Below are positions 30,240 to 60,190 of a stretch of 64,000 bases of DNA, piece by piece (position 1 is the first letter of the stretch; the number at the start of each line of letters is the position of its first letter). Origin of the DNA: Sarcomyxa edulis (Eukaryota > Basidiomycota > Agaricomycetes > Agaricales > Mycenaceae). The notes below the pieces were generated by a model, which had not been told where the DNA came from, did not search any database, and saw only the letters and a list, made by a program, of their open reading frames with translations. The stretch is from contig QUOL01000005.1 of assembly GCA_009761415.1 (NCBI GenBank), positions 310,001-374,000 on the forward strand, in the 5' to 3' direction. The translations under genes were made by a program, and so were the position numbers.

Positions 30240-31332
30240 CTATAGCTTCAACTCGTCCATTCTGTACCGATCGAGACTAACGTGGAATCCAACGTATCCA
30301 TGGCTGAAGCGTAGGTATGCTTCATGAGCGTCTTTGGACAAAATTTGCAGGCACCTTTTGTGAGCATCGACGACATCGTTCGAAAGGGAAGCGAGGGCCT
30401 GAATTTTGGTAGTGCCTCTAATAGCAGCGATCAACGAGACGTAGTTGACGCTGTCGCCGACGAGTTCTTCTTTATAGAAAGAAAACACGTCGCTGGGTGA
30501 ATCATAGTCAGCGTAAGTGTCTCCGTCACTTCATCCCAAATTTAGGACAACTTACTTTCCCTGATTGAGTATCACCCTGATATCTGGCAATGCTTGAACA
30601 TATGACTGCAGAGGAAGATCGGGAGGGAACACAAAGAGCGCGTATGCCTCAGATGATCCAGACATGAGGCGAGAAAACGTTGGGTAGTTCACAGCTTCTG
30701 TTGAGATCTAGAGACTATTGATGAGCTTCCTTCGAAGAAACTATGGAAGGACAGAGACACACCTTCATGCCCCGAGTGTCGTGTTCGAGCAGCAGACCAT
30801 TAACATAGTTCAAGGTCGATGTGGTGATGAGGTTGGCGACGAAAGGATTATAAAGGGTGGGGAGTTCCGTCAGGAGCATTTTAGTGAACGCATCCTGAAC
30901 GCCGTCGCCATGAGGCTGATTCTGCATGAAGCGTTGATTGAAGTTACGGACAACCTCAACGTCGTGCTCATAGAAGTCATCCATGTACACCAACGCCGCT
31001 GTGTACAAAGTTATGAACACCCGTATACGTTCGTCCTGGATATGAGCATATGCGGTGATACTCATCGCGCTACATCCCACGATGAATGGCCGGAGAGAGC
31101 CTTTTCCGGTCAAAGGATAACCTCTCTCTATTGCGGCTTGGAAGCATAGCTCCACAAACTCGGGGTCAACAGTAGGTGGAGGGTAGGGCATGTCGCAGCG
31201 CGTTAACAGAGAGTGTATGATCGTGCGGACAGATAGAGTCTACAACACATGAATTAGTACTTGGTGAACTAGGCTCGGAGATAGACTCACCATGTCGTCC
31301 AGGCCCGACGGTAGGGATGTCGAATGTTCCAT
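30240..31332 (-). CDS. TRI5-type sesquiterpene synthase, copy 1
   Basis: Four exons: 31332-31291, 31239-30763, 30707-30556, 30492-30240; 307 aa. It belongs to the trichodiene synthase (TRI5) family of class I terpene cyclases, which cyclise farnesyl diphosphate with three Mg2+. The Asp-rich motif reads YMDDFYEHD (Asp near residues 101-102). The NSE/DTE motif reads NDVFSFYKEEL, with its Asn codon split over the third intron. The C-terminal DRYR pair that senses diphosphate is present. All known catalytic motifs are therefore intact. The protein is shorter than Fusarium trichodiene synthase (about 370 aa) and the product cannot be predicted. Exon lengths are identical to copy 2 at 48781. Its neighbours are not tailoring enzymes. 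Confidence 0.9.
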
Positions 31333-33596
31333 ATGATCTATCGAGCAGAGGGTGTCAATGCAGAGAGGCCTGGGGAAAATGTCAGAGGTGAGACGAGTTT
31401 ATAAAGTCTTTCTGATACCCTTGTGAAGGCTGTCTGACTTGTGAGTGGACCGGTGCCAATCTTCCTGCCAAAAAAAAGACATGGATGACGAACATAACAC
31501 CCTTCAAGGAAGGCTCATCTCGCATAGTTCATGTGCCCCCGCGGTCGACTTCGTCGAGGATCTATAAAAACACAGCACGCTGGACGAGCGGCAGAGACGA
31601 CGCCTCTCGTCCGAGGAAATTAAGAATAAAGAGCAGCCCAATAGGTAGCCCGCCTGTGACTGAACCGTATCAATGTGCATATCTCTGGTGACAGAAGGTG
31701 ATCGATTGCTTTGAATCGCCGGAAAGTGCACGAAGATATACGAATTATCGCATTGGAGGATAAGACACCGTACGGAAACTCAAATCGCTTACCGTTTATG
31801 CACATACATACGAGCCACGTAATTCGGAAGGCCCCGCGATGGTACCGTTCTGTTTTTACAATGCACCGAGGGTTCCAGATTGCCAAAATTAGGCATTCTT
31901 CATCGGCATACGCATACGCCCAACTCTTGACGTTTCAGGAAGAAGAGAATAACAGTTCTGAGACGAGATAACAGCCACCGGAGACTAGCCAAGCTGCCGT
32001 CCAAGAGAAGCACCTCTTCACGGCGATCTACACTCGATTCATATCGGTGTAGTGCGGTGGATGATCTTTGAAAATGAGGAACACGAAGCATTGTCGAGGG
32101 CTGTGAGGTGGGTACGTTCAGTTTACGGGTAGTTACAGCAGAGGCCAGAACACAGCAGTTCAAAACCGTGTAGCACGTCGTACGAAAGGATGTGGCCAGA
32201 GGTGGCCAGAGGTGGGCATCGGCTGTACGGTGACTAAACAGTAAGAAGAGATATCAAGACGTCAAATTCCCCAAGATAGCATGGGATTTTCGCACCGTGG
32301 CGTAATTTCTGGAGTCATTGTTACTCGAAGACTGTTTTTGGGGACGAATTCAGGACGAAGGCGATCTCACCGCACTCGGAAAACAGCGGTGGAAGATGTT
32401 GAGTGGCATACTGCTACTTCCTATTGCAAAGAGGGGGTCAGCGAGATTCACGGGCATGTCATTACGGTAGAGACGACCACGAACGGACCTCCGTGAGGTG
32501 TTCATTTCGAGGCTTACTATCGGTGGACAGTCGCTTCCGATCGTACGCCGCGTTCCAGACTCCAGAACGTCCTTCACAAGCAATAATAAGCACGAGAGTC
32601 GACAGGTTCTTCCCAGTTGCTAGTGATTCCTGAACTTTGCTTGAGAGAGATTGGTCGGAAGAAACAATTTCGAAAGAAAAGTTCCGTCCACCGTGACCAT
32701 GATCGATTGATCGATCAGGCTTCGGAGGTCATGCAAGGTCACAAACGAACTGAGTCAAAGCGTTGAAGAAATAAGGGTGATATAGTAGTGGTATTACTCC
32801 GTTCGTGCTATTTGACAATACACAAGTACGTATGTACGCGAACAAGAACACAGAGTAGGATGAGAGAGGGAGAGGGAGAGAGATCAGATCAGAAATAAGC
32901 AGAAAGAGATAGCAGCAGTGTCGTTCGTAGGGTAGTAAGATTGCAGCGGAGACAATTTGACCAAGAGTATCAGCGATGGGTGTAGGCAGCACTAGAATTA
33001 GCAAGCACATTCGTAGGGAAGGGGTGGGGATGATCTGAGGACACGGTGCAGATAATATATAAGTAAGCGGAAGACGAGGGGGGGCATAATTAACTGACTA
33101 GTGAGTGGACGGTGGATGAAACCCACCACAGTGAAGGAACACGAAAGAAGACGCAAACGAAATAGAAAAGAAAGGAGACGAATAGAATGGAATAAAGAAG
33201 AAGAAAAGTTAATAGATCGCGGAGACAGCAGAAAAGCCGGGTTTGTTAGAGAAGCGATAACCAATGAAGCCCAAAGATAGTCCCACACCCATACATCCGA
33301 ATTTCAGCCGATTAAAGTGCGCAAGAAAACGGCGGAGAATGAACAGACACAGAAAGGGAGGGGAAATCCTGACCACTACACTTCTTCATCCACTTTTTTT
33401 TTTGCTTCGGGTATTCTTGTATCGCTTTTGATTGAGAGGAGTCGAGTTCGAGAGAGAAGAGATTAGCCATACATTATTATGCACACGAACGAGAGACAGT
33501 GGTGCGGGGGGTATCATGAGAGCATTGCACAGATCCAGGTGGACGTTCATTCGTTGGCGGTTGATGGTATAGTATGATCTTTCGGCGTCGAAAGAA
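31333..33596. other. Intergenic, 2.2 kb, gene-poor
   Basis: Holds the upstream region of terpene synthase 1 and, from about 32700, the probable 3' UTR and flank of the RNA-binding protein. Purine-rich tracts occur from 32860 to 33240. A 10-bp direct repeat (GGTGGCCAGA, twice) lies at about 32195-32213. No gene is supported. Confidence 0.5.
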
Positions 33597-36087
33597 TCAA
33601 GCGGTAGTGGTAGCCGCAGGAGCAGGTGCAGTCGGAGCGACGACATCGACATCGACATGCATATCTTGACCTTCCAAAGCAGGGACTGCGACGCCAGTCT
33701 CAGCAGCCGTGGCCTCTCCAAGTTCCTCTCCATCCTCCCCACCCAAAAAGACAGCATCCGACTCCATCTCTCCATCATCTCCGTCGCCTCCAACGGCGCT
33801 GCGAGGCTCAGCTGAGTTCGGTCCGTTCCCACTTGCAGAGCGTCTGCTATTGCCCGAGGCACCCTGAGGACCTGACCGGGGCGGGTTGGCACAGCGATCC
33901 TTCCCGTGCGCAATGCGCAAGCTCGCATACTCAGGCTTGTTCTTGACACCCTCGATAGCTTTGATCGCGTTGGAGATGTTCGTGAAATTGACGAATGCGC
34001 AGTTCCTACGTAAAAAAAAAATTAGATGAAACCCCCATGGCAACTGTATGAAACACAACTTACTTCTCCTTCAAGAAGTTGACGAGCTCGATATCTCCAA
34101 ACTCGCCAAAGTCTCTTTTGAATTTATCCTCCGTGAAGGTCTCGAAATCCTCGATGTTGCCAACGTACACATTCCTTGTTGCACCGGAGTGAACAGCGAG
34201 TGCCAAGGTAGGCGGTAACGGGCCAGAGTTCTTCCCCCAGCCTATTTTGAGACGACGGTTGTTCATCGTGAGTCCCTGGTACGAAGCTACCTGGAAGAAA
34301 GTAAACGCAGCAGCTGGGTCTACGAACGTCACGAACTGGGAAAAGACACAATAGAAAAGAAAAAAAAGAATTGAGAATGAGCGATAGACACTTGACTTTC
34401 ACAACGAGCGAAGAAAAAACGCACAGCAATATGCTTATCTTGCATGTAACGGATGCTCTGTAAGACCCCACCTCTGATCGCATTGCACAGATCCTCAGTG
34501 GACGTCTCTGGGTGGATGTTACCTAGATAAACCGTCCTGTTCAACCCTTGAGGGCCAGCCATGCTCTGCAAAGCATCTGCAGGCGAGAACAGACCCGAGC
34601 TGGGGTACGGGCTGTACGGAGAGAACGGTCCACCAGATTGCCCTCCAGGAGAGAGGGTAGCAGACTGCGCGACGAGAGACTGAGCAGCGGCTGCCTGTGC
34701 TGCCTGTGCTGCTGCCTGCTGGGACTTCGGGATGTACGCGCAACGATCTTTACCGTAGTTGACGCGTTTTCCGGCCCAGTTGGGTTCAGTGGGTAACGTG
34801 TTGACGACCTGTTGGCGCGATAATACACTGAGGGCGTGTAGAAGATAGACGGTCGAGGTATACTCACCTTGGTTGCGATAGAGATGCTGAGGAAATGCAC
34901 GAAACCGATGTTCTTATCTCTGACGATCTTGACCTGATCAATCAACCCAAAGCGACTCAAATCATCCCTCAACTGCTCCTCTGTCATGTTCTCCTCGAGA
35001 CCACCTAAATAAACGTTCCTACTAGCATTGCTCTGGCTGATGGCCAACGCCACCTGAGCCGGAACGGGGGAAGGTTTACCCCAACCGATCTTGAGCTCCT
35101 GCCCATGGAGTGCGAGCTTCTTGATGGTGGCGTCGGCGTGGAACGCAGCAGCTGTAGCACCATCTAAGAAAGATAAGAAGACGCAAGATTTTTCAGGGAG
35201 GACACGGATGGACTCGAGAGGTCCGAAATGGACGAGGTTGAGGAGCTCGTCAACGGAGGCTGTAGCGGGCAGGTTACCAACGTAGACGGTACGTCCGGTA
35301 GCGTTGGACGACGCTGATAAAGCTGCAGTTAGAGCTGCAGGGGAGTAAGACGATTGAGCAACAGGAATGTTGAGGTTCAAGGATGGCAGACGTTGCTGGT
35401 TGAAGTTCTGCGGTTGAAACTGAAAGGTCAGCGACGGCGACAGCTCGAGTCTAGAATGGACACACCTGGGCAAAGTTGGCCATTTGACCATTGTATGGGA
35501 ACCCTCCAAGCATGTTCATACCTGGGATACCCATGCCCAACATGTTGTAAGCTCCGAAGTTCGCGTAAGCATTTCCATTAGGGCTTCCCTGTTGTTGTTG
35601 TTGTTGCTGCTGGACCTGCTGCTGGACCTGCTGTTGCTGTTGCTGAACCTGCTGTTGTTGTTGCTGCTGGAGGAATGCTGCAGCAGTGTTGGGGCTGAGT
35701 TGCTGGGGCATGACACCACCGCTCGACTGGGTATTGATACTCAGGGAGGGAGTAGAGTAGAGAGGGCTGCCGCTGAAGCCGTTAGATGACGGAGAACCAT
35801 TGAAGGAAGATTGAGATTGAGGGCCATAGCCGTAGTTCGCGAAAACGTCACGAGGGGAGGCGGTACTGGGTGAACTGCCAGTTGGGAAGGAGGAATTCGG
35901 GGACCATCTTGCTTTCTTTGCATCGGGACCGCCAACGGGATCCATAGAGCGCTAGAATATAGGGAAAAACGGGGACTGGTGAGATGACTATGCAGTGTGA
36001 AATTTGAAATGTTGGCACCTTCATCATGTCGATATCAAACACGTAGGGTGGATATTGAGTTGCGAAGGCTGTCTGTGAGTCGTCCAT
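33597..36087 (-). CDS. Four-RRM RNA-binding protein, Nrd1/Msa2-like
   Basis: Starts [20 protein letters not shown] at 36087. A Ser-rich N-terminus with a long poly-Gln tract (about 35690-35590) precedes four RNA recognition motifs, whose RNP2 cores read [27 protein letters not shown] and [13 protein letters not shown]1-like cores include [22 protein letters not shown] and [18 protein letters not shown] and KDRCANPP follow RRM2 and RRM4. This four-RRM order matches fission yeast Nrd1 (Msa2), which binds mRNA, represses sexual differentiation and stabilises cytokinesis transcripts. The C-terminus is Ala/Thr-rich and disordered. The target role here is inferred from architecture. Confidence 0.88.
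35580..35690 (-). repeat. CAG/CTG-rich poly-glutamine coding repeat
   Basis: Imperfect CAA/CAG repeats inside the Nrd1-like gene encode Gln runs broken by Val. Such runs are length-variable and often promote RNA-protein condensates. Confidence 0.8.
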
Positions 36088-36497
36088 GGCAAGAAATAGA
36101 TAGAAAATGAACGCAAGAGGATAAGAATATGAGGAAAAAAGCAAAAAAGATGGAGTTAGAAGGTAGTGAACGTAGGGGAGGTAGGATGCCTCTCTTTGTG
36201 GGCGCAAAAGAGTGTGGGTTGAGTTGGAGGGAAAAAAGGACACGCACAAAAACAAAAGAGAGGTAAGTGGGGCGACTATTCGACTTGTAAAAAAAAAATA
36301 TCAAGCCAACGCTGCGAAAGAACAAAATCGCAAACTTGAAGAACAAGATGCCAACTAGAAATTTCAGACATCACCGCAGGATTTCCCACACGCACGGGCC
36401 ACCGCCAAGACGGCGAGCTCGACTAATTATTACGACGACTAGAACTACTAGGGTACAGGCTAGTCGGACGTCGACTCTAGCTCTCTAATAAGCTCCG
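36088..36497. other. Intergenic, 5' flank of the RNA-binding protein
   Basis: Contains A-rich plus-strand tracts (36125-36300), that is, pyrimidine-rich sequence upstream of the minus-strand gene, common in fungal promoters and 5' leaders. No gene. Confidence 0.5.
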
Positions 36498-39055
36498 TCA
36501 ATCCCAAATCTTCTTCGATCTACCAGGAATAATCAGTATCCTCATGGTCTCCGGGTAACCGCAACGCACCTGTTGTTTTAACAACACATCCTCTCGTCCT
36601 GCCGACGATCTAAACATCCCATCAATCTCTTCTAGGGATGCATTCGCCGTCTCGGGGACGAAATACGTGGCCCAGAAATACGCCAGAAAACATGCGGTCG
36701 AGAACACCATAAAAGTACCCCTGCAGCAGCAGCGTTAGTGCAAGCACCAAGGAAGTGCAATAGTGGACGTACGCAGGGGATATATCCATTAGAGAAGGCG
36801 TCACCAGGCCAATCAAAACTATGTCAGAGCGTCAGCATGTCGTATGTGATGTCGGGACAACACAAACAGTTATTCATCCAATTTGACGCCGTAGAAAGCG
36901 CTACACCTTTACTCCTGATCGATAATGGAAAGACTTCGCTAGGAAGTATCCAGGCGACGGGCCCAAAGGATACTCCGTATGCCGCTGTAAAGATGTACAT
37001 GCAACTGTCACTCTCCGTCAGCGCCAGTCAGAAGAAATGTCCTGGAGAGCGACTCACGCAATCGAGCCCCAGACAGCCACTGCACCTGACGCCGAAGATG
37101 CCCCAGACCCAGATAATCGTATCTGTAAACTCGGGAGTTATAAACGACAAGCATGCCGATGAACAGATGGACGAACTATCATCGCTATGACTAGATGCGA
37201 GGCTGCCATCACAGCGCCTCCGCCTGCCGAAGAGTAGGTCAAATGCCAATCATATCCCAAAGAGTAAGAGGGACCATACTTCGAAGTAGCAGTCTTCTCC
37301 CTTCGCGACGTCGTTAGTATAGACGTCTAGCACAAGTGAAACGAAGACTGACCTAGACGGTCGATATACAATATGGCAGGGAAAACAGCCAGCAACTGCA
37401 CGACCCCAATGCCTCCTGAAACAAGTAGTATCACCTTGTCCCCTCGCATGCCGATACTCTGTACTAGTATTGGGCCAAAGTACAGGAAAGCATTGATACC
37501 ACTCCATTCTAAACATTCATTCGTGGTCAATACCACATTCGGAGTGTGAGCGTAGAACATACGTTGGAAAACCATCATCAGCACACCGATCATAGTCCGG
37601 TCTCTGTACTTGTATCGAAACAATTTACCCCAAGCTTTCAGTTCACTTCCAAAGCCGTTCTTCGTGCTATCAGCTCCAGCCGACCGCTGGACAAGTGTCG
37701 TCTCGACACGCATCTCAAGCATTTCGATCTATACACCCATATAAGTTTAATTGCTTTGAGCGCAGTCGTAGCAGCTAACCTGAAGCAAAGGATCAGAATC
37801 AGCTTCGTCGGGCGCCCTCAGCCTCAATCTCGCGAGGCTTCTAAGAGCTTCTTCATAACGGCCTTGCAAGACCAGGTGACGAGGAGAAGGTGGAAGGAAT
37901 ATACACCCTATTCCTAGAATGACTCCTGGAATGATTTGGATTCCAAGTGGGATACGCCATGAAACAGAGCTGTGTACTGATCAATCATAAGAAGCCTTCG
38001 AGAGACGAGAGACTCGTACGGGAAACTCACTTGAACGAGTGAAAAACCCAGTCCAGAATCCGAATACGACACCAAGGACGATGGAAAATTGTTCCAGAGA
38101 CATAAGCGAGCCCCGTACTTCTGGTGGACTGATTTCAGCCATATAAAGCGGCGACAGCATACTGAAAGAAATAAGAGTGAGTCACAGGGAAACCTAAGTG
38201 AAGGTTGAGATGAAAGGCACCTTAAAGCGCCAACACCGACACCACCTATAGCTCGCCCAACGAAGAGATGCGTGAGGGATTGAGCTCCACACTGGAATCC
38301 CGACCCGATGCAGAATATTACTGATGCCTTTGGTTTCAATATCTGGATACCATGCATATTATTTTTCGCACTCACTACACGCTAAACATATCGAATACCT
38401 TCGCGAGAATCGATCCGCTAATATGCCCGCAGACAATGCACCGAACAGCGCGCCAAGTTCCAACACAGCAGCTGCATCACCATGTCAGAAACCTCATTGT
38501 ACGTGTATCATGTATCGTAGCAGTGAAACGAACTCAACAATCCTTTCTGCAGAGCCGTAAGAGGCCATCTCTGCAGAAAATCGGACATGACTAAGACATT
38601 GGCGATGACTCCTTGGTCGTAGCCGAAAGTAAGACCTGAGATACACCGATTACTTCAGGATTCAGTAGGTATACGTAGAAGAGAAGCTCACCTCCAATGG
38701 ATGCGAAGACAGCACACAGGAGTGCATAGTAATTGTGAACCAGGCCTGCTAACCCTTTCGGTCCGTACGTGTAGTTATACGTGTGGCCATCTGCACTGAC
38801 TGTGAAGGACCCAAGATGTGATGTATGCTTCGTGAAGCCTTGTTTGGAGCCTGAGCTTGGAGAAGGAGGAAGGAGCGGTTGTTCCTGTGAATCCGTGCCA
38901 GAGTCACGTCGAATCGGAGTATGCTCAGACTCGTGTACGGCTTCTGTGGATTCTGAGAGTGCTACGTAGCCATCGCCACGATTTGTCTACATGGATAGTG
39001 GTTTGATCACTTGTGTCATCGCTGTGGCTCAGAAGAAAGCCTAGGGACGCACCAT
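36498..39055 (-). CDS. MFS sugar transporter
   Basis: An intron-rich minus-strand gene. The model starts with a first exon consisting only of ATG (39055-39053), a GTGCGT donor, then TNRGDGYVALSESTEAVHES. The N-terminal tail is polar. Sugar-porter signatures follow: IGGLTFGYDQGVIANVLVM, WSGINAFLYFGPILVQSIGM, LAVFPAILYIDRLG, SEVFPLSIRSKGVALSTASN and YFVPETANASLEEID near the C-terminus. It is a 12-helix plasma-membrane symporter or facilitator of the hexose/inositol family; the sugar is unknown. Some of the small exons between 37250 and 38650 could not be placed with certainty. All diagnostic motifs are present in order, so it looks functional. Confidence 0.83.
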
Positions 39056-46604: not shown

Positions 46605-48780
46605 GGGTGATGATGGTGGATAAGTCCGAGTCGGATTGGTTTCGTGACCGGCCGTCAAGCTCATTCGGACTTCGAATTTCTCTTTTCTTTCATCACGAAT
46701 TCACGATCTTGGCCTCTCTTCTTCTCGTTCGTTCAACTTGAATCATATTTTCCCTACTGTGCTCTGCTTTACGGATAGATCAACGCATATCCTTCTTGTA
46801 CAATTGTTAGTACTGTCAGCTTTCTTCCCGCACCTATTCTCCATCATTCAACTAGTTAACAGCTAGATTATTTGACATCTACCTAGATAGATATCAGACG
46901 GAATAGATGAACATACTGTTCCTTTTCTCATGCGAGAGCTCCTCTAGTTTCAGTTCTCCCATACAGTCGTCAAAGCTATCGCCGGAGTCAAGAGTCGTGG
47001 TCAGGTCGTGGTTTGTGGTCTCAGAACCTCCGCTCAAGTCCCGCATACAAAAACACAGGAGCTGAGCCAGTACTAGTATGGACTGACCTCATTTTTATGA
47101 TCACTAGCAGTTACCCGTGACTACGTCACGGCAAGCAGAATTGCGAGAAAAGTAGTATCAAGTGAATGGTTATATTTTATATGCAGCTCGTCATCGCGTC
47201 ATCCCGGAGCATGCGATGTACGTATAGCACATTGTGAGGATCGTAAACAAAGTAAATTGAGCGTGGGCAGAGCCCCCGCCCAGCCCGTGCCCCAATGAAT
47301 GTCCAAGATTACCAATGATCCTCGCCTGTGAAGGCAAGAGCACTGTTGTGCTGATATATGTTCTCTCTAACTTCAATATCCCGGTCCATATCTTCCAATT
47401 GGTACCAGGAGACACGTCAAAAGTGGAAAACGGAGTTGTCCATGGTCACTTTCCGAATGCCGGTGTTTTTCTCGACAAATCGGCAGCATCTTCTGTTATC
47501 CAATGCCACAGTGCGTTGAGTTTTCCCGTGGGCCATTACAATCGACATGAACTCACGTACGCGCATAAATCCGTTTGTTTTGTCGCGTTCTGTCGGGTCT
47601 AGGTAAGTAGTCATTACGGTCGAGGCTTTCTTGATTTTCTCGGCGGTGCGGTTGGCAATTCGGGGTAAGAGGCTAGTGATGCTTGGAGTCTGTGCAGCGA
47701 GATCCCGTGTGCACTGAGGGGTTGATGAGGTGCCTGTCAGAGATGTAGGTCAGATACCTCAATGTAAGCTAGTAGACTCATGATAGTCCGAACGAAATGC
47801 TCTTGCGCGCGTGCACATTCCCGTGTCTGTACTCTGTGACCAAGTTTCCGGCCTATCTAGCCCATTCGCGTACCCTACGAAGCCGGTTGAACATATATGT
47901 TTGCCTAGAGGACATGTAGCGATTAGTGTGATACTCGGTGAGGAAGTTAACTTACCATAGGTCCTCGAAGATGCTCGGGTGGAATTATGTCGATATATCC
48001 GCCGCATCGCTTATAGCTACCTCAACGCGAACCTAGTAACGCTGGAGCGAGTCGAAGAGATCTGTGAGGTCGTTATTAGCGTTATCGGTTCTAAAAACAC
48101 CGTGAGTTAGCGCTAGGAGAACCTATCTAGTTAAGTTACTCTTGCAACATAGCGAGCAATATCATGATATACATACTCTTGTTCTAGTTTACGGGGAGTT
48201 CACGTTCACAGTTGAGAGAGAGTGTGTGTGTGGAAATAAACAGTTAAGATTGCTATAATTGATGCTGCAAGACCCAAGAAAGAGATCTACAGAGAGAGTG
48301 TGTGTGTGTCGGATGAGAGCGGATGAGCGAAGATGAACGATGAGCGAGAGTGTGATCGTCAGCCAATCAGAACGACTTTTTGTCTCGGGCGTTTCGGGCA
48401 CATTTGAGCGTGCGAAAAGCAACTGTGTTTTATAGTATAGATTTCCCAGGTCGATGTCTATCGATTTTGGTCTGTAGACGCCGGACGGAACTATGCCATC
48501 GCAGGAACATCGATTTACTGCGCCATACCGCGTGGGCGCCCTGTTTTCTCTAGCCCCGACGATTCGAGTCTTCTTGAGTTTTTCAGGTTGGGTCGCTCGT
48601 GTTTCTTGTCCTTTTTTCTTCTTCTTCTAGCTCAATGGAGTCGTCCGCTGAACTTTTGAGACGCGCTGTGGACAGCTCGACGTGATGTCGGCACAGTTCG
48701 GTAAGCAGTCGTTATAAGTTCGTTCAGTCTCTGAGTCCTTCTCTAAAGTCTCTTGACAGTTTTCATTCTCAACAGATCCC
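46605..48780. other. Intergenic, 2.2 kb
   Basis: I found no supported gene. A GC-rich patch (47262-47295) and two copies of a GAGAGAGTGTGTGTGTG tract (about 48216-48232 and 48292-48310) are the only structures. It contains the promoter of terpene synthase 2. Confidence 0.45.
48216..48310. repeat. Pair of GAGAGAG(TG)n tracts
   Basis: GAGAGAGTGTGTGTGTG occurs twice with about 60 bases between them. Simple-sequence origin is likely. Confidence 0.75.
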
Positions 48781-49889
48781 ATGACGGTCCCACCTACTTC
48801 AGGACTCTGCTCGAACGACGTGGCAAGTCCAGAGTCTGACAATTGATTGCCTCACAAACTCATTCGATAATCACAGACTCCAGTCATTCGCCACGCCATA
48901 CAATCTTTCCTATCACGTTGCCGCATTCCATACCCTCCACCTGCCGTCGATCCCAAATTTGTGGAGATCTGTTTCGAAGCTGCCCTAGAGAGGGGCTTTC
49001 CACTTGTTGGGAAGGGCTCTCTCCGCCCGTTCATTCTAAAATGCAGCGTGATGAGCATCACCGCATACGCCCATATTCCAGACGAACGTATACGAATATT
49101 CATCACGTTGTACACCGCCGCTCTGGTCTATATGGATGACTTCTTCGAGCACGACGTCGAAGTCGTGCGTAACTTCAACCACCGCTTCTTGCAGAATCAG
49201 CCCCACGGTGATGGCGTTCAAGACGCTTTCGCTAGAATGCTCTTGATAGAACTCCCCACCCTTTACAACTGTCTCTTCTCCAACCTCATCACTACCTCAA
49301 CGTTGGATTACATCAATAGTCTATCTCTCGAACACGACACTCGGGGTATGAAGGTGGAATTCTCTGCTTTTTTGACCTCGTGTTTCGGAACAAGAAAAAC
49401 TCATCCGTAATTCTCCTCAGTTGTCGTCAGAAGCAGCAAATTACCCAGCGTTTTGCCGCAATATGTCTGGGGTATCACAGGCATACGCGCTCTTCGTCTT
49501 TCCACCCGATTTGCCTGTGCACTCCTACATACAGGCGTTACCAGATATCATAGGATTCGTCAATTATGTCAAGTGAGTTCTATGAAACCAGTGGGTTTAC
49601 AAAGCATCTCAACTAATTCTTGTTCCCGTCGATCAGCGACATACTTTCCCTCTATAAAGAGGAGCTCGTCGGCGACAGCGTTAACTATATATCATTGGTA
49701 GCTGTCATTCGAGACATCTCCAAAGTCAAGGCCCTGGTCGATCTCTGCGACGATGTTGTCGACGGCCACACGCGGTGCCTTCAGATTCTATCCGAAGACG
49801 CTTACGACGCATATTTGAGCTTCAGTCATGGATACGTCGAATTCCATGCTAGTCACGATCGATATAGGTTGAAGGAGCTTGAGTTGTAA
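48781..49889 (+). CDS. TRI5-type sesquiterpene synthase, copy 2
   Basis: Four exons: 48781-48822, 48877-49353, 49421-49572, 49637-49889; 307 aa, the same exon lengths as copy 1. Trichodiene-synthase family: Asp-rich motif YMDDFFEHD near residue 101, NSE motif NDILSLYKEEL with the Asn codon split across intron 3, and DRYRLKELEL at the end. The first intron is best read as GC-AG (GTG then GCAAGT); a GT donor four bases on would break the phase-0 join. Expected reaction: ionisation and cyclisation of farnesyl diphosphate. All catalytic motifs are intact. It is flanked by the B1 and B2 paralogues and followed by a terpene synthase relict. Confidence 0.9.
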
Positions 49890-50530: not shown

Positions 50531-50830
50531 AGTCCTGTTCCGGTCTCTGTCCTCCGCGACGTCCTCATTGCGTTGCCACATTTCAGACCCTCTGCAGGTT
50601 GTTGACCCTGATTTCGCGGACATACGATTTGGGGCTGCCTTCAAGAAGGTTCACGCTCACCGCTAAAAGCTCTTTAGTTTCTTGAAAATTGATAGCAGCT
50701 GATGTTGGCGACGCTCACGAGTGCGCGCTGCGGATCTTAACCCCCTCTTATCACACACGGCGCAGGACATATTGAGTTCAGGCGATTTTAAATATGGTCT
50801 GCCGCATGAATATAGAGTTGTATCTCGTTT
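50531..50830 (+). pseudogene. Internally deleted terpene synthase (TRI5-type) relict
   Basis: One frame reads LRCHISDPLQVVDPDFADIR followed by FGAA and stops at 50664-50666. It aligns with SRCRIPYPPPAVDPKFVEIC and FEAA of copy 2 (R, C, I, P, V-D-P, F, I, F, A-A kept). About 35 bases on, another frame reads AADVGDAHECALRILTPS, aligning with NNVADAHQRALRILSPS near the C-terminus of copy 3, then AQDILSSGDFKY, which resembles ALDAYARFSSGYVEF. The whole centre, including both metal motifs, is missing. It is a dead fourth copy. Confidence 0.7.
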
Positions 50831-51241
50831 CCGAGTCTTGGGTTTGATGACTCCCGACTTGAATGGATCATTTGGTGTCTACGCCGTGTTACTGGAGGTG
50901 TCAAGAGCGTCCTACGTGTGTGGCTTTCGTGATATTCTCTATCTGCTTCCATCTTGGTTATTCTGCTTTTTTCTGCCCAAGACGTGGGACAGAAATGTCA
51001 TATCTTCATCTAAGAGATGGTCGCAACCCTCATGCTAAAAAAAATCTGGGAGGATTGTGGACACGTTACTGGTCACAAAGATGATATTTCCAATTTAGGA
51101 AAACGTGAAAGACAAACGGAAACAAATCAACGCGTCTTTGCCTCCCCTGAACTAAACATATTCTTGACTCGCACATTCAGAACAACACTCCCAAACGAAT
51201 AGCTTTCAGAATCTCTCACTCCATCCTCTTCTATCTCGACA
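50831..51241. other. Intergenic
   Basis: The 5' flank of paralogue B2; only unsupported short ORFs. Confidence 0.45.
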
Positions 51242-52356: not shown

Positions 52357-52542
52357 GCATGGTAGACGTACTCTGTCAGCCCGTATGGTAGTAATAAAAG
52401 TTACTGATCACGTTACTTTCGCCTTCTTTCTTCCATCTCGATCCCCAGATTCTCAATTCTTCTTTCATGTCTTATCGTCGACTCACAGTTGTACATACGA
52501 CACACACGCGTAGATTCTGAAGGCACTGACTTCTCTTGAAGA

Positions 52543-52605
52543 ATGGTGAACGCACTCCGCATTACTCGAAGAGCATACAGTACTCAAAGACTCGGAGTCT
52601 CCGAC
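52543..52605 (+). other. Short coding-like start cut by a transposon (possible mitochondrial presequence)
   Basis: ATG opens MVNALRITRRAYSTQRLGVS, which looks like a fungal mitochondrial targeting sequence (Arg-rich with RRAYST), directly at the outer transposon edge. Sequence after the element (58008 on) includes a reading frame MTASTSQKPVIKGEGQAYPW, but I could not join the two with good splice sites. It may be a disrupted small gene or a coincidence. Confidence 0.25.
52598..52605. repeat. Target site duplication of outer element (left)
   Basis: TCTCCGAC here recurs exactly at 58000-58007 on the other side of the element. Confidence 0.85.
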
Positions 52606-52724
52606 AGGCCCCGGGAAGCTCCACCAAGGGCTTGTCCGGCCAAACCTCCCAGATCAGGCCTCAAAAAGGCAAACTTTCGGGCTCAAATATGCAAAGTCGG
52701 ACAACCATGTATCGCAGTCACACC

Positions 52725-52732
52725 CTGTGGCC
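52725..52732. repeat. Target site duplication of hAT element (left)
   Basis: CTGTGGCC here is repeated exactly at 57693-57700. Confidence 0.95.
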
Positions 52733-53320
52733 TAGTGTTGCCACGGCTTGGCTCAAAGCCGCTAGCCGTCGAAGCCGAGCCGAAAATTAGCTAAGCCAAG
52801 TTGGCCACATGGCTACGACTTCGAGCAGCTCGGCTTCATCGGCTTGCGGCTTTTGCCGGCTGGCTCTCGGCTTGGCCGTGGCTCTGTCCCGATTTGGGTC
52901 AGAAATTTTGCAGAACCACGACTTTCCTCGTTCTCATGCTCATCGTCGTTCGTCGAGCTATCAATTGCTGTCTAGGATGACTCAAGCTCATCTACTCTCT
53001 ACGCATCCACCTATACTCCATATGTCAGCCTTGTGGAACCCCATAACCCAGATATGAGCAGATCTCTGAGTGTCACCAAGTACAGACACTCGAGATTCTG
53101 CGACATGATTCCTTGGGACAAATTCGAGGTGTGTTCCACCAAATTTTACCCCACTGTTGTATATAGAATCTGTTTCGTTTGACATCTCTCTCAGAGCTTT
53201 GTGAGCAGGGAGCCTATCAATCACATATATCTTTCTTGTATCTATCGAAACACATCCCGAATCGCGCATACGTGAGTACTTAGATCTTTATTACTTCAAC
53301 GTATATCGTTGACAGCCTCT

Positions 53321-53821
53321 ATGGCTGCAGTTGCAATGCATTCCAGACTGCCGTACCCCAAAATTGCGACGCACATTGTCAGTGTGACCCTGTTGACGAA
53401 GTTCCGTCTAGACATCTCGTCGCACATAGTAGACGGGCTAAAATCTGTTGCGACATTTGGAACGGGCTCTGGTGGAACGTCGGACTTCATGTCAGTCCCA
53501 TTTTTGCCCTGCTCTCTTTTACGAACTGATCACCATTCGACTTCAGGACTGTGCTCCTATGTTCCCGAAACCCATGGTTTCCGGAACTATTGGACGGCGG
53601 ATGCTGCGCTTCGACAGATCTCGATCTTCAGTCACATTTACAAGGACCACGTAGCCTTCCCTGCAATTCCTCCGGTTGCTCTACGTATCGGACACCGATT
53701 GGACGGGCCTCTTGAATATCTACCACTAAAGTTATACCACACAGGTACTCGACCGAACCATGATAATATAATATACATGTTTCTCGAGTCAAGAAGGCTT
53801 GTTCCTCAGTGTTTCATTTGA
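53321..53821 (+). CDS. Unrecognised ORF in the 5' part of the hAT element
   Basis: A 166-codon ORF inside the transposon, upstream of the transposase. It contains SGLCSYVPETHGFRNYWTAD and IYKDHVAFPAIPPVALRIGH, but a plausible intron (GTCAGT near 53490, CAG near 53547) would change the frame. I see no known domain. It could be a captured host fragment, a second transposon gene or noise. Confidence 0.25.
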   Translation: MAAVAMHSRLPYPKIATHIVSVTLLTKFRLDISSHIVDGLKSVATFGTGSGGTSDFMSVPFLPCSLLRTDHHSTSGLCSYVPETHGFRNYWTADAALRQISIFSHIYKDHVAFPAIPPVALRIGHRLDGPLEYLPLKLYHTGTRPNHDNIIYMFLESRRLVPQCFI

Positions 53822-54076
53822 CAAGCAGGTTTGGCTCTTATTTGCTCAACTATGAGGACCGAAAGACCTTCCAGGTCACTTGTTATCACCCGGCGCCCAG
53901 AAGAATCAAACACATGTAGTCTGTGGTTGCGATATGTGCAATATGTGAAGTACTAGTGTGGTGGTATGTTCCTGTTTCAGATTGTTCGAAGGGTAAGGTG
54001 TTTCGCTAACCGTTATCTTTAGCTATAAGGTCACCAAGGAATTGGGTATGTACTTCACTGTCTCCGCACCTTCCCT

Positions 54077-57000
54077 ATGCCTCCCCGACGCTCTGCTAGA
54101 GACAAGTCCACGGTGCTCCCAAACGGAGCCTTAGAAACGGTGTTCCCAATTGGCGGTACGTCGATTGACATTCATTTGACACCACAAATTCAATTCTTGA
54201 CTTGTTCTTAGCACCGAATACACAGTTACCTGCTCCTGCCCCACCCCGAAAACGTGCAACGCGCAAGAAACAATCTGCCGCTACTGCTGAACCGCTGGTA
54301 GCGTCGGGTCTTCCAGTCACTCAGGCTATCACCGAAAGTCCTCGGTCTCGTCGTCGACAGCATCAGCCCGAGCCCTCCACCCCTCAATCTGAAGCACTAC
54401 CAGCACCTTCGAGCTCAAGCAACTCGGATCTCGTGCCAGGTATGTCAACTTTAGATCAGTTCGCTAAGTTGCTCCCTCGAACACTTATTGCCTCATGCTT
54501 TAGAACGTGGCAACTCAAATCCTTTACCGCAGACTGTTGAGGATGTCTTCCAGGCATCTCCATCTCTAGCCGGTGTTCTGCCCCACCAGCGACAAGAGAC
54601 CGGTTTTAATATATCGGGTGAATTCTTCGATTTTGCACCCATAGGTTTTACCGATTCGGACGTGTCTGGATCTTCTCGTCCACCTAGTCCTGGTCTCTCT
54701 GACAGAGCTCGAGGATCTCCCAGGCACGGGCGTCATAGTCGTCAATCACGTTCTTCGCGAGCAAAGTCCGGACCAGTCGGCAACAAGAAGAGTCATCTGG
54801 CCAGCGATATTTGGTCGTTCTTCAACGAGAAGGACAACAGACGGTGTTGTGTCTTATGCCAGTATGTAAACACTCATATGCCCTTTTTGTTTGCTCATCA
54901 TATCTTCTAGACATCAGCATGCAGCACATCCGCTTACAAAGGTGGCCGATTTCAGCTTCACCACCGGCACTGACCCCTTGCGGAAGCATCTCATCGACCA
55001 TCATGTTGACACTTGGATCGCAGCTTGTGACAAGCTCGAAATAAAGATCACAGCTAAATCCGCTCAGCGCGCCGTCGCCGATTATCGACGACGGCAAGGT
55101 CAGTCGTCCGAGAGCAACCCAGACGCAGAAGCCAAGAATGGCTCACCCCCATTCTCGCAAGAAGCTTTCGTCAATGCTATTGTCGAGTTCATTGTTGCGG
55201 ATGACCAGGTACATTGTTCTGTCTGACTCGAGCTCTGGGTTCTCTAACTATGATTATAACAGTCTCTCAATGTCATCGAGTGCCCTCAACTACGTGCAAT
55301 CTTTCTCATGCTCAGGGAAGAGCTCAAGGACACCGACATCCCGCATCGCACCACAATCCGTAATCGGATTATGGAAATCTGGGACGAACACCTCGATCAA
55401 CTACAAGATGAGATGCAGGTATGCTCTTCCCGCCGTCGTCTATTTTCTTGATTTTAATCGTTGGAGTTAGTCATCGTTAGGGAAGATTTCCCTGACCATG
55501 GACATGTGGACAGACCCAAATCTCTCGCCGTTCATGGCAGTCACTGCTCACTGGATCGAAGGGTTGACCATTCAGACTGCGAATGGTCCTCAACATGTTC
55601 TTCAACTTCGAGCGGACCTCATTGGCTTCCACCGTGTTCCTGGTCATCATAACGGAGAGCACCTAGCTCACGCGTTTCTGCATGTCATTGATCGTTTGAA
55701 TATTGCGAACATGGTCAGTTCTTTTTGTAGTACCATGATCAGCAATCTAATGTCACCCTAGATTGGGTGGATCACTCTGGACAACGCATCCAATAATGAC
55801 ACGTTCATGTTATACTTGGAGATCCTCCTCCAAAGACGGCATATTCCGTTTTCTCGGATCAAACGACGAATTCGGTGCGTGTCCCCATTCTGATTGTTGA
55901 CAAGATCTGATAATATTGGCAGATGTTTTCCGCATGTTGTTAACCTAGCATGTAAAGCTGTCCTTGGTGCTGTGACAGACTTGAAGCATGCAGCATCAGA
56001 TGCCGCTGATTTTGTCCCTGTGGTAGGTGCAGCTCCGCAAACGTTCATGGACGCCATCGATAGAGATCCGATCGCCACTGTAAGAACTTTAGTTCGAGTT
56101 GTGAGTATTTTTTCCAACTCCTCTGTCAAGGCTACAACTTATGTCCGTACTATATGATTCTCTAAGATACGTGCATCATCTATTCGACGCCAATATTTTT
56201 CGGCCATTCTTAAGGCCTTGGAAGGGAAAGACCTCCAGTTGCTTCGTGACGTTGACACAAGATGGTCTTCAACACTTCTTATGATCGAACGAGCTGTCCT
56301 TTTACGTGAGGTGCGTGTACAATTTTTGGCTTTCTCACTATCAAACCAGGACTCAAGGCCTGCATACAAGGCCATCACGCAGTTTCTTAGCAGCAACGAG
56401 TTCGAAGATCTCCGCAAATACCAACTCGGAACGACAGAATGGGAAGCACTCGAAGCTTTTCAGAAGATCCTTGAGGTAGAGCCCTTTTTCCGCAATTTTT
56501 CGGTGAACTTACAATCTTCGCAGGTTCCCCATGCATTCCAGCAAAGATTATCAGCCGAAAAAACTCCCACCTTGTGTGATGCTATCCCGTCTTTCGAAGC
56601 AATGATTCGGGTTTGGAGGAGACAGCAAGCTGAGCATCCGGAGACCTCACATATCATTCAGAAAGGTCTCGACAAGTTATGCGAGTATCGCGAACGGATG
56701 GATCTCGTTCCTGCCTATGTTTTAGCAATGGGTAAAGTGATGATACCTTTCGCAACCTTCTGTGCTGACCTTTCTTCATCCGTGTATAGCAGTGAACCCA
56801 TCTATCAAGTTACGATGGTATACAGAATTTGCACCCGAGAAAGCCCGTGAGGCGAAGGAATTGTTCATCCGCGAGGTCAGTGTGATGATGTCGACTCGAA
56901 ATTAGAGCTAACCTTCCTTATGTTAGCTACGCTCATATCGTGTTGCAACAATGGCTACACCTGCCCGTCAACCACGTAATCGCGCTGCCTGTGACTGGGC

Positions 57001-57518
57001 AGATGAGCTTCTCGGATTCCACACAGCTGCGCAGCCATTACTACCCCAGCAAAGCATCGAGGCGGAGGTAGAAGCATATCTACTTGATTCTCAAGTTGGG
57101 ACAAGCAGTGTAACCTTCTGGCAGGTCAGTCGTTCCTCTGCTACTAATATATCTCACGACTTTCGCTGACTTTGGGTGTCATCGTTGGCAGGAGAATCAG
57201 GTCCGGTATCCGACTGTCTTTGCCCTCTCCATGGATGTCCTCCCAATTCAGGGTTCGGCAGTCCCATGTGAACGAGTTTTCTCATCCAGCAAAGAAACGA
57301 CGTCTGCACGGCGGAATCATATCAGTGCGGAGCTCATGGAAGCCCTTCAGATGCTGAAGTTCAGCATCAGAAAGGGTCGAGGCCTTGACTTTACTCTGGG
57401 GACAGCTAAAACAGCTGAGCTCGAGGTCTTGGAAGGTGTTGAAGCTAATCAGCAGGCTATTCCGGAGGATATGGCTGCGTTCATAGATAGTCTGCTCGCT
57501 GTGAGGGACCGCAAATAG
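54077..57518 (+). CDS. hAT transposase with BED zinc finger and hAT dimerisation domain
   Basis: Starts MPPRRSARDKSTVLPNGALE; about eleven exons. The N-terminus is basic and disordered. A BED-type zinc finger is formed by SDIWSFFNEKDNRRCCVLC and DPLRKHLIDHH (C-x2-C ... H-x4-H). The RNase H-like core shows the first Asp in SLTMDMWTDPN, the second in IGWITLDNASNND, and the RCFPHVVNLACKA (C-x2-H) signature. A helical insertion follows (AITQFLSSNEFEDLRKYQLG and on). The C-terminal dimerisation domain reads GSAVPCERVFSSSKETTSAR. It cuts and pastes the surrounding element. I found no stop or frameshift when joining exons with normal splice sites, so it may be active. Confidence 0.88.
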
Positions 57519-57692
57519 ATTATATCTTTTTTATCGTCCTAATCCGGTCAAGCCGGCGGCTAGCCATGAACTGAGCAACTGGCTCCATTAGCCAGCCGTC
57601 ATTTCACGGCTTGGCTCGGCTTCTCAGCCATAAATTCATTAAGCTGCCCTAAGCTGAGCCGAGCCGAGCTAAGCTAAGCCGTGGCAACACTA

Positions 57693-57700
57693 CTGTGGCC
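57693..57700. repeat. Target site duplication of hAT element (right)
   Basis: CTGTGGCC, identical to 52725-52732. Confidence 0.95.
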
Positions 57701-57999
57701 CCGCCAAGAGCGTGACCTTTCTCGGCGAATATACTTTTTCGTCCAGTTTTCGCTCATTTCAGCTTCTCTTCTCGGCGGTCAGCACAATTCCTCCCGGAAA
57801 CGAGAATGGTAGCAAATTTGACCTTAGTTCTCCTACATTAGGCCAGGTGAGAGACCTTTGGCCCTGGAATATGCTAAATCGGACAGAGGTTAACAAGATT
57901 TGGCCTCAAATATGCAAACTCCGGACAAGGAAAATGCAAAATCTTGCCCTCAAATATGCTAAAATCCGGACAAGCCCTTGGTGGAGATTCCCGGGGCCT

Positions 58000-58007
58000 T
58001 CTCCGAC
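58000..58007. repeat. Target site duplication of outer element (right)
   Basis: TCTCCGAC, identical to 52598-52605. Confidence 0.85.
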
Positions 58008-59068
58008 AGACAATCAGATCGAGAGTTTTTTTTGACTTAGAAACTGCCATGACGGCTTCCACTTCTCAAAAACCTGTCATTAAAGGCGAAGGCCAAGCAT
58101 ATCCTTGGACTCCTGAGGACCCACTGTCACCACCGATAGGTGCACAACTTGGCACGAATCCAGGAAGTAGACCGTCAACCGCGCTCATTACTACGATTCA
58201 TAGCGCCCACCTGACATGAATCGCTGCTCGTACAACGCTACTCCATACAGAAGCCATTTCTCATTAGTAGGTCTATCCAATGTCATATCTGATTTCCGCT
58301 GTCAATCTACTAGGCACCCGTCCTTTTTTTTCCCGGTTGAACGATCTCGTAACCACAAAATATACCTGAAACCTCTCTGAGAGAGAAAGAGTGACTGGTC
58401 ACTGACCACAAACCCTTGTCAGACTCAGGTACCCGTCAAGGCGTTGTGGTATAACCATCACCACATTCTTTGACGGGATTCAGTAACGAATTTTCTTTCG
58501 GATTACCGCAAAACGATGTTGTTGCCGATAAGTGAGTAATCTCCAAGGCCGGGCTTTGTTTTTTTCCTCTTGTTCACCTTCAGTAGAGCATAGTCAAGCA
58601 AATTTTTCGACCTCAACTGGATAGTCAGGAGATCGTGGTCCATTATCCTCTCTTCGTTATTGACGGTTCTCTCTGAGCAACAATACACTTTCCTCTTCAG
58701 GATATGCACAACCGTCAAGCGTCAAAGGCAATCCGCGCGGGAACGTTGCTATTCACGGTATACAATCGGGTCCGATGCAGTGGATCCGTCGAATTCTACA
58801 GTGCATCGCCGGCACTCTTCATATCCTGGGTCTCCTCGGTTGACACGGAGCGCCGGTATATCCTTCTCTATATGTGTTTTGGGCCTAAGGTCTAGCCCCG
58901 ACTGCACATGCACTTTGTAATGCACCCCTCGAAGAAATCATACCTCATGTTTGTGTATCGGCATCTTATCATGCCTTATGAGCAGTCAAGCAGGTCCTAT
59001 AAAGCCTACTTGGCTCTTACACTTTCTTCAGAAGCATCTGCAGGTTCCCCCTCTACTGAGTAAACCAC
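58008..59068. other. Intergenic, right flank of the nested transposon
   Basis: A short frame beginning MTASTSQKPVIKGEGQAYPW (about 58050-58219) may belong to the interrupted gene at 52543. A near-palindrome AGTGACTGGTCACT lies near 58390. Nothing else supported. Confidence 0.4.
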
Positions 59069-60190
59069 ATGGCACATACCACACGTTCTACAGACTTGCG
59101 ATTAGACGACACGGCAAGTGTTCACTGATCACTGAACACATACTGCGGAGGTTGACACCATTATTACAGGCTCTCTCTATTCGCCATGCCATCCAAGCCT
59201 TCTTATCGCGTTGTGGTCTTCCGTATCATTCACCTGCTTCTGATCCCAAATTTTTGGAGGCATGCTTCCAAGCCGCTATCGAGAAGGGCTTCCCTCTTAC
59301 TGGAAAAGGCTCCCTTCGTCCGTTCATCGTGACGTGCAATACTATGGGCAGTACCGCATACGCGCACCTCGCCGACGAACGGGTTCGGATCTTCATCACT
59401 CTGTATACCACGTCCATGCTCTACATGGAGCATAACTTCGAGAACAATGTCGAAGGGTCCCAAGTTCATCACTTCATCCAGCGCTTTTTGACAAATCAAC
59501 CTCAAGGGGATGCCGTTCAAGACGCGTTTTCCAAGATGCTTTTGGTCGAGATGCCGACCCTCTACAGCCCCTTTGCCTCGAATCTCATTATTTCATCGAC
59601 GATCAATTTCATCAACGCTCTATTGCTTGAACGCCACACGAAAGGCATGCAGGTACCCAGATTCTATTTACAGTCCAGAGCAAATAACTCAAATGTCTTG
59701 CTTCTCAATTCTAGATCTCTTCCGAAGCAGTCAATTACCCAACCTTCTCTCGCATTATGTCTGGGGCGGCTGAGGCGTTCGCACTCTTCATCTTCCCCTC
59801 CGATCTGCCGTTGCAGTCCTACATCCAAGCATTACCAGATATCGTGGTGTTTCTTAATCATGGAAAGTAGGTCCTTCCAGTTTCCGAGAAACTCTACCGA
59901 CAATTCTCAACCTTAATTTTCTCCTCGTCAGCGATATCTTTTCTTTCTATAAAGAAGAGCTGGGCGGTGACGACGTCAACTATGTATCGTTGGTCGCTGC
60001 TCTTCACAAGATCTCCAAGATCGAAGCTCTTATCCTCGTTTCAAACAACGTTGCAGATGCTCACCAGCGGGCTTTGCGGATTTTGTCGCCCTCGGAAGGC
60101 GCGCTTGACGCATATGCACGCTTCAGTAGTGGATATGTTGAGTTCCATGCGAGTTCCGATAGGTACAAGTTGGAGGAGTTGGACTTATAG
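59069..60190 (+). CDS. TRI5-type terpene synthase, copy 3, with altered Asp-rich motif
   Basis: Four exons: 59069-59113, 59170-59652, 59715-59866, 59932-60190; 312 aa. Overall a close relative of copies 1 and 2, with the same intron positions. The NSE motif is intact (NDIFSFYKEEL, Asn split across intron 3) and the C-terminus keeps DRYKLEELDL. However, the Asp-rich motif reads YMEHNFENN instead of YMDDFxEHD: both leading aspartates are replaced by Glu and His. The first intron is GC-AG (ACG then GCAAGT), as in copy 2. No frameshift is present, so the gene is not obviously dead; it may be inactive, use fewer metal ligands or have a changed role. Confidence 0.87.

What the first reader, a model, noticed from the sequence alone, without database searches (positions are those of the whole stretch)
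30240..60190. Dispersed TRI5-type terpene synthase family: three genes and one relict within 30 kb
Copies at 30240 (minus), 48781 and 59069 (plus) share four exons with the same intron positions and phases, and a dead copy lies at 50531. They are not arranged as one tandem array and are not next to P450s or other tailoring enzymes. This looks like ongoing local expansion with decay, interleaved with transposons and orphan gene pairs, rather than a standard biosynthetic cluster.
Basis: partly seen in the sequence, partly recalled or inferred. Interest (0 to 1): 0.75.

Follow-up and report, generated by a model that had tools for sequence, protein, structure and literature searches.

The report
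Old TRI5-type terpene synthase gene family
This mushroom-type fungal genome carries a small, old family of five terpene-making enzyme genes, three of them near each other; this is an ordinary kind of gene family, except that one branch has kept a changed metal-binding site that may alter what it makes.

Summary
Three intact four-exon TRI5 genes lie at 31332-30240 (-; A), 48781-49889 (+; B) and 59069-60190 (+; C), intron phases 0, 0, 2. A short, internally deleted relict lies at 50571-50748. No P450 turned up in the window (scan not exhaustive).

'Ongoing local expansion' is not supported. Two more copies lie on other contigs: D (C37) and E (C14). The five form one clade, (D,((A,B),(C,E))), so C's nearest relative is E, off this contig. 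Synonymous divergence is high (dS 0.87 for C-E, 1.5 for A-B). D sits among P450, FAD-monooxygenase-like, acyltransferase and GST genes, so the family is not free of clusters. A 5.4-kb hAT insertion makes up most of the B-C gap.

They resemble the D100E change made in trichodiene synthase.

The family and deviant first motifs are in print, as is a clade IV pair with a truncated neighbour. New members of a known kind.

The parts
30240..31332 (-). Copy A: intact 4-exon TRI5-type terpene synthase, 307 aa; Asp-rich motif DDFYE, NSE motif NDVFSFYKE, DRYR
   Evidence: Gene model and introns; Pfam TRI5 67.5 bits; motif
48781..49889 (+). Copy B: intact 4-exon TRI5-type terpene synthase, 307 aa; DDFFE, NDILSLYKE; intron 1 is GC-AG. 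The 5' end is uncertain (see Noticed in passing)
   Evidence: Pfam TRI5 61.4 bits; motif
50571..50748 (+). Relict of a TRI5 gene: two collinear pieces (start of exon 2 at 50571-50648; part of exon 4 at 50689-50748), middle missing, frames differ
   Evidence: tblastn pieces; pair criterion met here and in 0 of 40 shuffles
52606..57999 (+). hAT element, 5,394 bp, 34-nt terminal inverted repeats (97%), 8-bp target-site duplication (52598-52605 = 58000-58007), between relict and C
   Evidence: Pfam Dimer_Tnp_hAT in 57114-57515; TIRs; TSD
59069..60190 (+). Copy C: intact 4-exon TRI5-family gene, 312 aa, with EHNFE at the place of the Asp-rich motif and a 2-residue insert just after it; NSE motif NDIFSFYKE and DRYK kept; intron 1 GC-AG
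   Evidence: Pfam TRI5 50.9 bits; motif table
59428..59442 (+). Codons of E102-H103-N104-F105-E106 in copy C, at the place of D(D/E/N)xx(D/E)
   Evidence: Codons; the aligned columns hold DD in a protein named trichodiene synthase (P0057) and in longiborneol synthase CLM1

Best explanation
A small, old, lineage-specific family of class I sesquiterpene cyclases of the trichodiene-synthase type (TRI5, PF06330; 'clade 4' or 'TDTS' in the literature), with five intact genes and one stub found in this genome. A and B (and D) have both metal motifs and most likely ionise farnesyl diphosphate with Mg2+ and cyclise it through a bisabolyl-type cation (inferred from the family). C and its off-contig sister E have Glu-His in place of the two conserved motif aspartates but keep the NSE motif, the DRY residues near the C-terminus and purifying selection. 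I think they still ionise a prenyl diphosphate, through a carboxylate at the first motif position plus the NSE site, with lower turnover and a looser product range. Shown: gene structure, clade, motif change, constraint, genomic setting. Inferred: activity, substrate, products. The confidence given is for the family reading; for C and E still being active I give about 0.55.
For: Gene models (D and E). Pfam TRI5 over cut-off in 5 of 5. Nearest solved structures are longiborneol synthase CLM1 (E 1.4e-29), SydA and trichodiene synthase. Tree: the five form one clade 100/100, with (A,B) 100/92 and (C,E) 100/99. No intact copy beyond these five was found in the genome. NSE motif NDxxSxYKE in 5 of 5. 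The first two motif letters are DD in 56 of 64 aligned rows and EH only in C and E; of the other six, two are ED, two DE, one DN, and one (CQ) is a broken row, P0007. dN/dS C-E 0.14 (bootstrap 0.09-0.20), as low as the canonical pair A-B at 0.125 (0.07-0.18); C and E share the change, so by parsimony this constraint acted after it. Literature: the D100E mutant of F. sporotrichioides trichodiene synthase gives bisabolenes (11% and 11%) with other sesquiterpenes (PMC9835599, passage). Termitomyces TTC15-T153, whose first metal motif differs from DDXXD/E, is active on GPP and FPP and gives bisabolenes (PMC8751386, section 9).
Against: No enzyme was assayed and no transcript seen. In the TDTS survey only 10 of 23 selected enzymes with complete motifs were active in Aspergillus oryzae (PMC11122449, passages), so an intact gene does not guarantee activity. 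The second motif residue is His in C/E, which the published D100E does not cover. C and E have the lowest TRI5 scores of the five. dS values near or above 1 are close to saturation and NG86 is crude; YN00 failed for 8 of 10 pairs.
Confidence: 0.72

Rival explanations
1. Ongoing local expansion with decay: recent tandem duplicates being born and lost in this 30 kb.
For: Three copies and a stub lie within 30 kb. B, relict and C are on one strand, B to relict 682 bp, B to C 3.8 kb less the hAT element. A and B are sisters.
Against: NG86 dS 1.5-2.1 among the window copies. A protein 91% identical to A over 52% of its length exists in another source and joins A before B does. C's sister is on another contig. 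Homology between copies ends near the gene borders, with only about 50 bp upstream shared by C and E.
Confidence: 0.12
2. C and E are catalytically dead: the loss of both conserved aspartates abolished diphosphate ionisation and the proteins are kept for another role (for example as partner or regulator of the active paralogues).
For: EH at an almost invariant DD (2 of 64 rows). The Pfam TRI5 scores of C and E are the lowest of the five (50.9 and 50.2 bits). Neither C nor E has (D/N)DXX(D/E) or DDXXXE in its N-terminal half, so a published pipeline would discard them (filter in PMC10210940 section 12).
Against: NSE and DRY are kept, and C-E shows no loosening of selection against A-B. A first-position Glu is tolerated in D100E trichodiene synthase, and a deviant first motif in TTC15-T153. 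Glu at position 1 also occurs in two other family members, P0014 and P0026, with Asp kept at position 2.
Confidence: 0.3
3. The window copies feed a split pathway: A, B or C make hydrocarbons that are finished by the tailoring genes next to D on contig C37 or by P450s elsewhere.
For: D lies within about 20 kb of two P450 loci, an FAD-monooxygenase-like gene, a PF02458/PF22664 acyltransferase and a GST; no tailoring gene was seen in the window; the copies are one clade.
Against: No expression or metabolite data. Volatile hydrocarbons need no tailoring; CubG1 and CubG2 of Psilocybe are active synthases encoded side by side (PMC13096983, passages).
Confidence: 0.15

Closest known systems
Psilocybe cubensis clade IV synthases CubG1/CubG2 with pseudogene cubG3 (PMC13096983, passages seen)
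   Same: Clade IV sesquiterpene synthase paralogues encoded side by side in a mushroom genome, with an internally truncated synthase pseudogene beside them; eight clade IV synthases in that genome
   Different: CubG1 and CubG2 are near-identical (young); the window copies are 61-70% identical. Their Pfam domain was not seen: the paper's tree groups them with Tps1A/Tps2A, which PMC10608071 (section 14) assigns to the UbiA domain, so they may not be PF06330. No sequence comparison was made.
Trichodiene synthase-like sesquiterpene synthases, TDTS (PF06330; PMC11122449, outline and passages seen)
   Same: Same Pfam domain and NSE motif; 305 of 517 TDTSs in that survey are from Basidiomycetes
   Different: The survey tested only genes in complete clusters with complete DDXXD; no cluster was seen around the window copies, and C/E lack the motif
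Trichodiene synthase D100E (described in PMC9835599 and PMC7354511, passages)
   Same: Glu at the first position of the Asp-rich motif, as in C and E
   Different: A laboratory mutant of an ascomycete enzyme with the second Asp kept; C/E also have His at the second position and a 2-residue insert. The profile of E, C and D matches trichodiene synthase chains only over positions 147-310 (E 1e-10 at best).
Termitomyces TTC15-T153 (PMC8751386, sections 7 and 9 read)
   Same: Clade IV mushroom cyclase whose first metal motif departs from DDXXD/E while NSE is kept; active
   Different: Its motif letters were not in the text that I saw, so it is not known whether it is EHxxE
Longiborneol synthase CLM1 (PDB 8h4p)
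   Same: Best solved relative of the profile of E, C and D: E 1.4e-29 over positions 44-310
   Different: It has DD at the motif

Membership tests
TRI5 / TDTS (PF06330) terpene synthases | Pfam TRI5 domain over the curated cut-off (25.2 bits) | tested here: met
   67.5, 61.4, 50.9, 62.7, 50.2 bits for A, B, C, D, E
TRI5 / TDTS (PF06330) terpene synthases | NSE motif NDxxSxxxE | tested here: met
   5 of 5 own proteins
TRI5 / TDTS (PF06330) terpene synthases (copies A, B, D) | Asp-rich motif D(D/E/N)xx(D/E) | tested here: met
   DDFYE, DDFFE, DDVFE
TRI5 / TDTS with canonical metal motif (copies C and E) | Asp-rich motif D(D/E/N)xx(D/E) | tested here: not met
   C EHNFE, E EHTFE; no (D/N)DXX(D/E) or DDXXXE in the N-terminal half of either. 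C and E are family members by descent, not members with the canonical site
TRI5 / TDTS (PF06330) terpene synthases | Length 250-500 aa and no complete PF19086 domain | tested here: met
   307-336 aa; PF19086 absent or under its cut-off of 23.7 bits in 5 of 5
TRI5 / TDTS (PF06330) terpene synthases | Cyclisation of FPP/NPP | not testable with these tools
   Needs enzyme assay
Terpenoid biosynthetic gene cluster (window copies) | P450 or other tailoring enzymes beside the synthase | tested here: not met
   No PF00067 match listed in C36:310001-374000; nearest listed on C36 at 276185-276571, about 33 kb left of the window (92 of 338 candidates scored); 20 of 187 ORFs scanned with Pfam show none
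Terpenoid biosynthetic gene cluster (copy D, contig C37) | P450 or other tailoring enzymes beside the synthase | tested here: met
   P450 at two loci, FAD_binding_3 in two ORFs, PF02458/PF22664 and GST_N within about 15 kb upstream; PhzC-PhzF within 20 kb (10 of the 28 ORFs listed); co-regulation not tested
Tandem array | Neighbouring copies in one orientation | tested here: inconclusive
   Met for B-relict-C (same strand, hAT inserted between), not for A (17.4 kb away, other strand)

The most novel reading that the evidence does not exclude
C and E are a naturally evolved class I terpene cyclase lineage that works with a Glu-His first metal site in place of Asp-Asp, kept under selection since before the two genes separated: a natural, viable counterpart of the D100E experiment with a shifted product range.
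Probability: 0.45. Interest if true: 0.55.

Novelty: new member of a known kind. Interest (0 to 1): 0.32.

Why it matters
As a gene family it is ordinary: TRI5-type synthases are common in Basidiomycota (1154 clade 4 sequences for 233 genomes in PMC10210940, table 4 passage), and a clade IV pair with a truncated neighbour is in print for Psilocybe. Two points are of use. The EHxFE pair gives a natural test of how far the first metal motif of terpene cyclases can be changed; the motif criteria of two published surveys would leave such genes out. The contrast between D inside a cluster-like locus and its relatives, around which no tailoring gene was seen, lets one ask whether the other copies feed the same pathway.

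Tried and rejected
Relict as a chance match: rejected, because the three best tblastn hits outside the genes fall in one 180-bp stretch and the collinear-pair criterion met here was met in 0 of 40 shuffles. Its closest paralogue could not be told (the N-terminal piece scores best with B, the C-terminal piece with E). Retroposition: rejected, all five genes keep the three introns. Segmental duplication with flanks: rejected at blastn sensitivity for 40 kb each of C14 and C37 against 104 kb of C36; only the genes match, for C/E plus about 50 bp upstream. C as a fresh pseudogene: rejected, the frame is open and dN/dS with E is 0.14. A transposon as carrier of the synthase genes: no support, the hAT element ends at 57999, 1,069 bp short of C's start codon. 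YN00 estimates failed for 8 of 10 pairs (math error), so NG86 was used. On print novelty: in seven searches of the open-access library and the passages read I saw no report of an EHxxE TRI5 enzyme; none of the searches was for those letters, most subscription papers are not held, and supplements could not be read.
Full report
Observation. The three genes are there and are correctly placed. A runs 31332-30240 on the minus strand, B 48781-49889 and C 59069-60190 on the plus strand. Each has four exons and three introns of 51-67 nt at corresponding places in phases 0, 0 and 2. All pass Pfam's TRI5 cut-off. Pairwise protein identities are A-B 70%, A-C 63%, B-C 61% of aligned residues. The relict is real but small. 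With the genes masked, the three best tblastn hits of the window all fall in 50571-50748 on one strand. Two pieces are in gene order (start of exon 2, then part of exon 4), with about 200 residues between them missing and a change of frame. The collinear-pair criterion is met here and in 0 of 40 shuffles of the masked window. The best shuffle score was 30.8 bits against 32.0 for the best hit here, and with default settings the pieces reach only E 0.041 and 0.005, so the pair rather than either piece carries the case.

The rest of the family. The window lies in C36:310001-374000 of a 35.6-Mb, 40-contig genome. Searches with PF06330 and with two proteins found two further intact genes and no others: D at C37:451865-453039 (336 aa) and E at C14:98245-97133 (312 aa), with the same intron phases (the relict itself was below these searches' reach, so other stubs may have been missed). 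In a tree of 54 rows the five are one clade with 100/100 support, arranged (D,((A,B),(C,E))). Ten of the 64 rows were left out of it: P0001, P0007, P0023, P0044, P0051, P0052, P0053, P0055, P0056, P0059, all short or broken. The tree warns of long branches, but not among the five. E on another contig is C's sister. In a second tree of 13 rows on the first half of the proteins, an unnamed 200-residue protein (P0001, 91% identical to A over 52% of A) joins A with 97/95, before B. The species was not identified. Named relatives are mostly from fungi that I know as Agaricomycetes (Gautieria, Infundibulicybe, Punctularia, Plicaturopsis and others), with three from Ascomycota (Byssothecium, a Xylariaceae, Trichoderma) (classes recalled).

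Age. NG86 dS is 0.87 (bootstrap 0.65-1.16) for C-E and 1.5 (1.07-2.56) for A-B; for the other pairs it is 1.6 to 4.0 or unusable. With the close relative of A in another source, this speaks for old duplicates, not ongoing expansion. The hAT element between relict and C looks younger (inference): 52606-57999, 34-nt inverted ends 97% alike, an exact 8-bp target-site duplication, a hAT dimerisation domain. Its inner 4.2 kb has only partial matches elsewhere in the genome (68% and 82%, both on C4). Less the element, B and C would be 3.8 kb apart on one strand, with the relict 682 bp behind B. So B-relict-C looks like a worn tandem row, and A, 17.4 kb away, is turned round.

Setting. Of 187 ORFs of 90 aa or more in the window I scanned 20, chosen by eye, against Pfam. 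Ten gave matches: F-box, RhoGEF, P-type ATPase (two ORFs), mitochondrial carrier, RRM, a sugar-transporter hit under its cut-off, hAT dimerisation, alpha/beta hydrolase and clathrin light chain; ten gave nothing. The genome scan for P450s lists none in the window; the nearest listed on C36 is at 276185-276571, but it scored only 92 of 338 candidates. D is different. Of the 28 ORFs listed for C37:432001-472000 I scanned 10, and 8 matched: P450 at two loci (436910-438494 and 449530-449943), FAD_binding_3 in two ORFs (a monooxygenase-like gene), an acyltransferase of PF02458 with the PF22664 'trichothecene 3-O-acetyltransferase-like' N-terminal domain, a GST and a PhzF-like protein. Around E, 10 of 28 listed ORFs gave no tailoring enzyme, and one search lists no P450 on C14. 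The Pfam names describe resemblance; nothing here shows a trichothecene pathway.

The metal site. In trichodiene synthase the Asp-rich motif that begins at D100 coordinates MgA and MgC and the NSE motif chelates MgB; D100E and D101E are listed among mutations that changed the kinetics (PMC7354511, passages). A, B and D have DDxxE. C and E have EHNFE and EHTFE, share a two-residue insert behind it, and differ from A/B/D at 15 fixed sites in all, two of them these aspartates. Neither has (D/N)DXX(D/E) or DDXXXE elsewhere in its N-terminal half. In 64 aligned rows (5 own, 59 found) the first two letters are DD in 56, EH in C and E only, ED in P0014 and P0026, DE in P0025 and P0028, DN in P0029, and CQ in P0007, a broken row. 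The fifth position varies widely (Q in 18, E in 14 of 64), so the first two letters are the fixed part in this set. NSE is kept in all five own proteins. dN/dS between C and E is 0.14 (0.09-0.20), like A-B at 0.125 (0.07-0.18). Since C and E share the change, the constraint measured between them acted after it, unless it arose twice.

How it probably works. A and B should ionise farnesyl diphosphate and cyclise it through a bisabolyl-type cation, as clade 4 enzymes are taken to do (1,6- or 1,7-cyclisation of NPP, PMC10210940 section 12; bisabolyl cation, PMC13096983 passage). For C and E the nearest experiments are D100E trichodiene synthase, which gives bisabolenes with other products (PMC9835599, passage), and Termitomyces TTC15-T153, with a deviant first motif, active on GPP and FPP (PMC8751386, section 9). 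I therefore expect C/E to be slow, broad-product cyclases (about 0.55); a dead enzyme kept for another role remains possible.

Known or new. The family is known: 517 TDTSs in PMC11122449 (305 from Basidiomycetes), of which 23 with complete clusters and motifs were tested and 10 were active; 1154 clade 4 sequences for 233 basidiomycete genomes in PMC10210940. Five per genome is unremarkable beside that. Psilocybe cubensis has eight clade IV synthases, two of them side by side with an internally truncated pseudogene (PMC13096983, passages), though their Pfam domain was not seen and they group with Tps1A/Tps2A, which PMC10608071 (section 14) assigns to the UbiA domain. What I found no report of, within the limits of seven searches, is an EHxxE TRI5 lineage; such genes fail the motif criteria of PMC10210940 and PMC11122449.

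Noticed in passing
C37:432340-453039 of the same genome (L006-L008): Copy D lies in a cluster-like locus with two P450 loci, an FAD-monooxygenase-like gene, a PF02458/PF22664 acyltransferase, a GST and a PhzF-like gene.
   Followed up: partly
52606-57999: 5.4-kb hAT element with 34-nt TIRs and an 8-bp TSD; its left end also matches C34:2188609-2188733 (98% over 125 nt) with an inverted 34-nt piece at C34:2189002-2189035, perhaps a small non-autonomous relative.
   Followed up: partly
47091-47496: A stretch with pieces that recur on C12, C23, C40 and C3; on C12 and C23 a 36-nt piece lies about 0.8 kb from other matching pieces, like a small transposable element.
   Followed up: no
48823-48828 and 59114-59119; E on C14: Intron 1 starts with GC (GCAAGT) in B, C and E but with GT in A and D; on the tree this needs a GC gain with a reversal in A, or two gains.
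   Followed up: no
48685-48785: An ATG at 48685 followed by GTAAG and AG sites could be an extra 5' exon in frame with B; the 5' end of B is therefore uncertain (read by eye; ATG position).
   Followed up: no
P0007 (unnamed source, 3.1-kb contig): A related protein prediction whose similarity to the family stops before the Asp-rich motif, perhaps a decayed copy in a related fungus.
   Followed up: no
C12:326163-409759 of the same genome: PF19086 terpene synthases: 26 exon-level hits in about 13 places by my grouping, four of them within 84 kb on C12.
   Followed up: no
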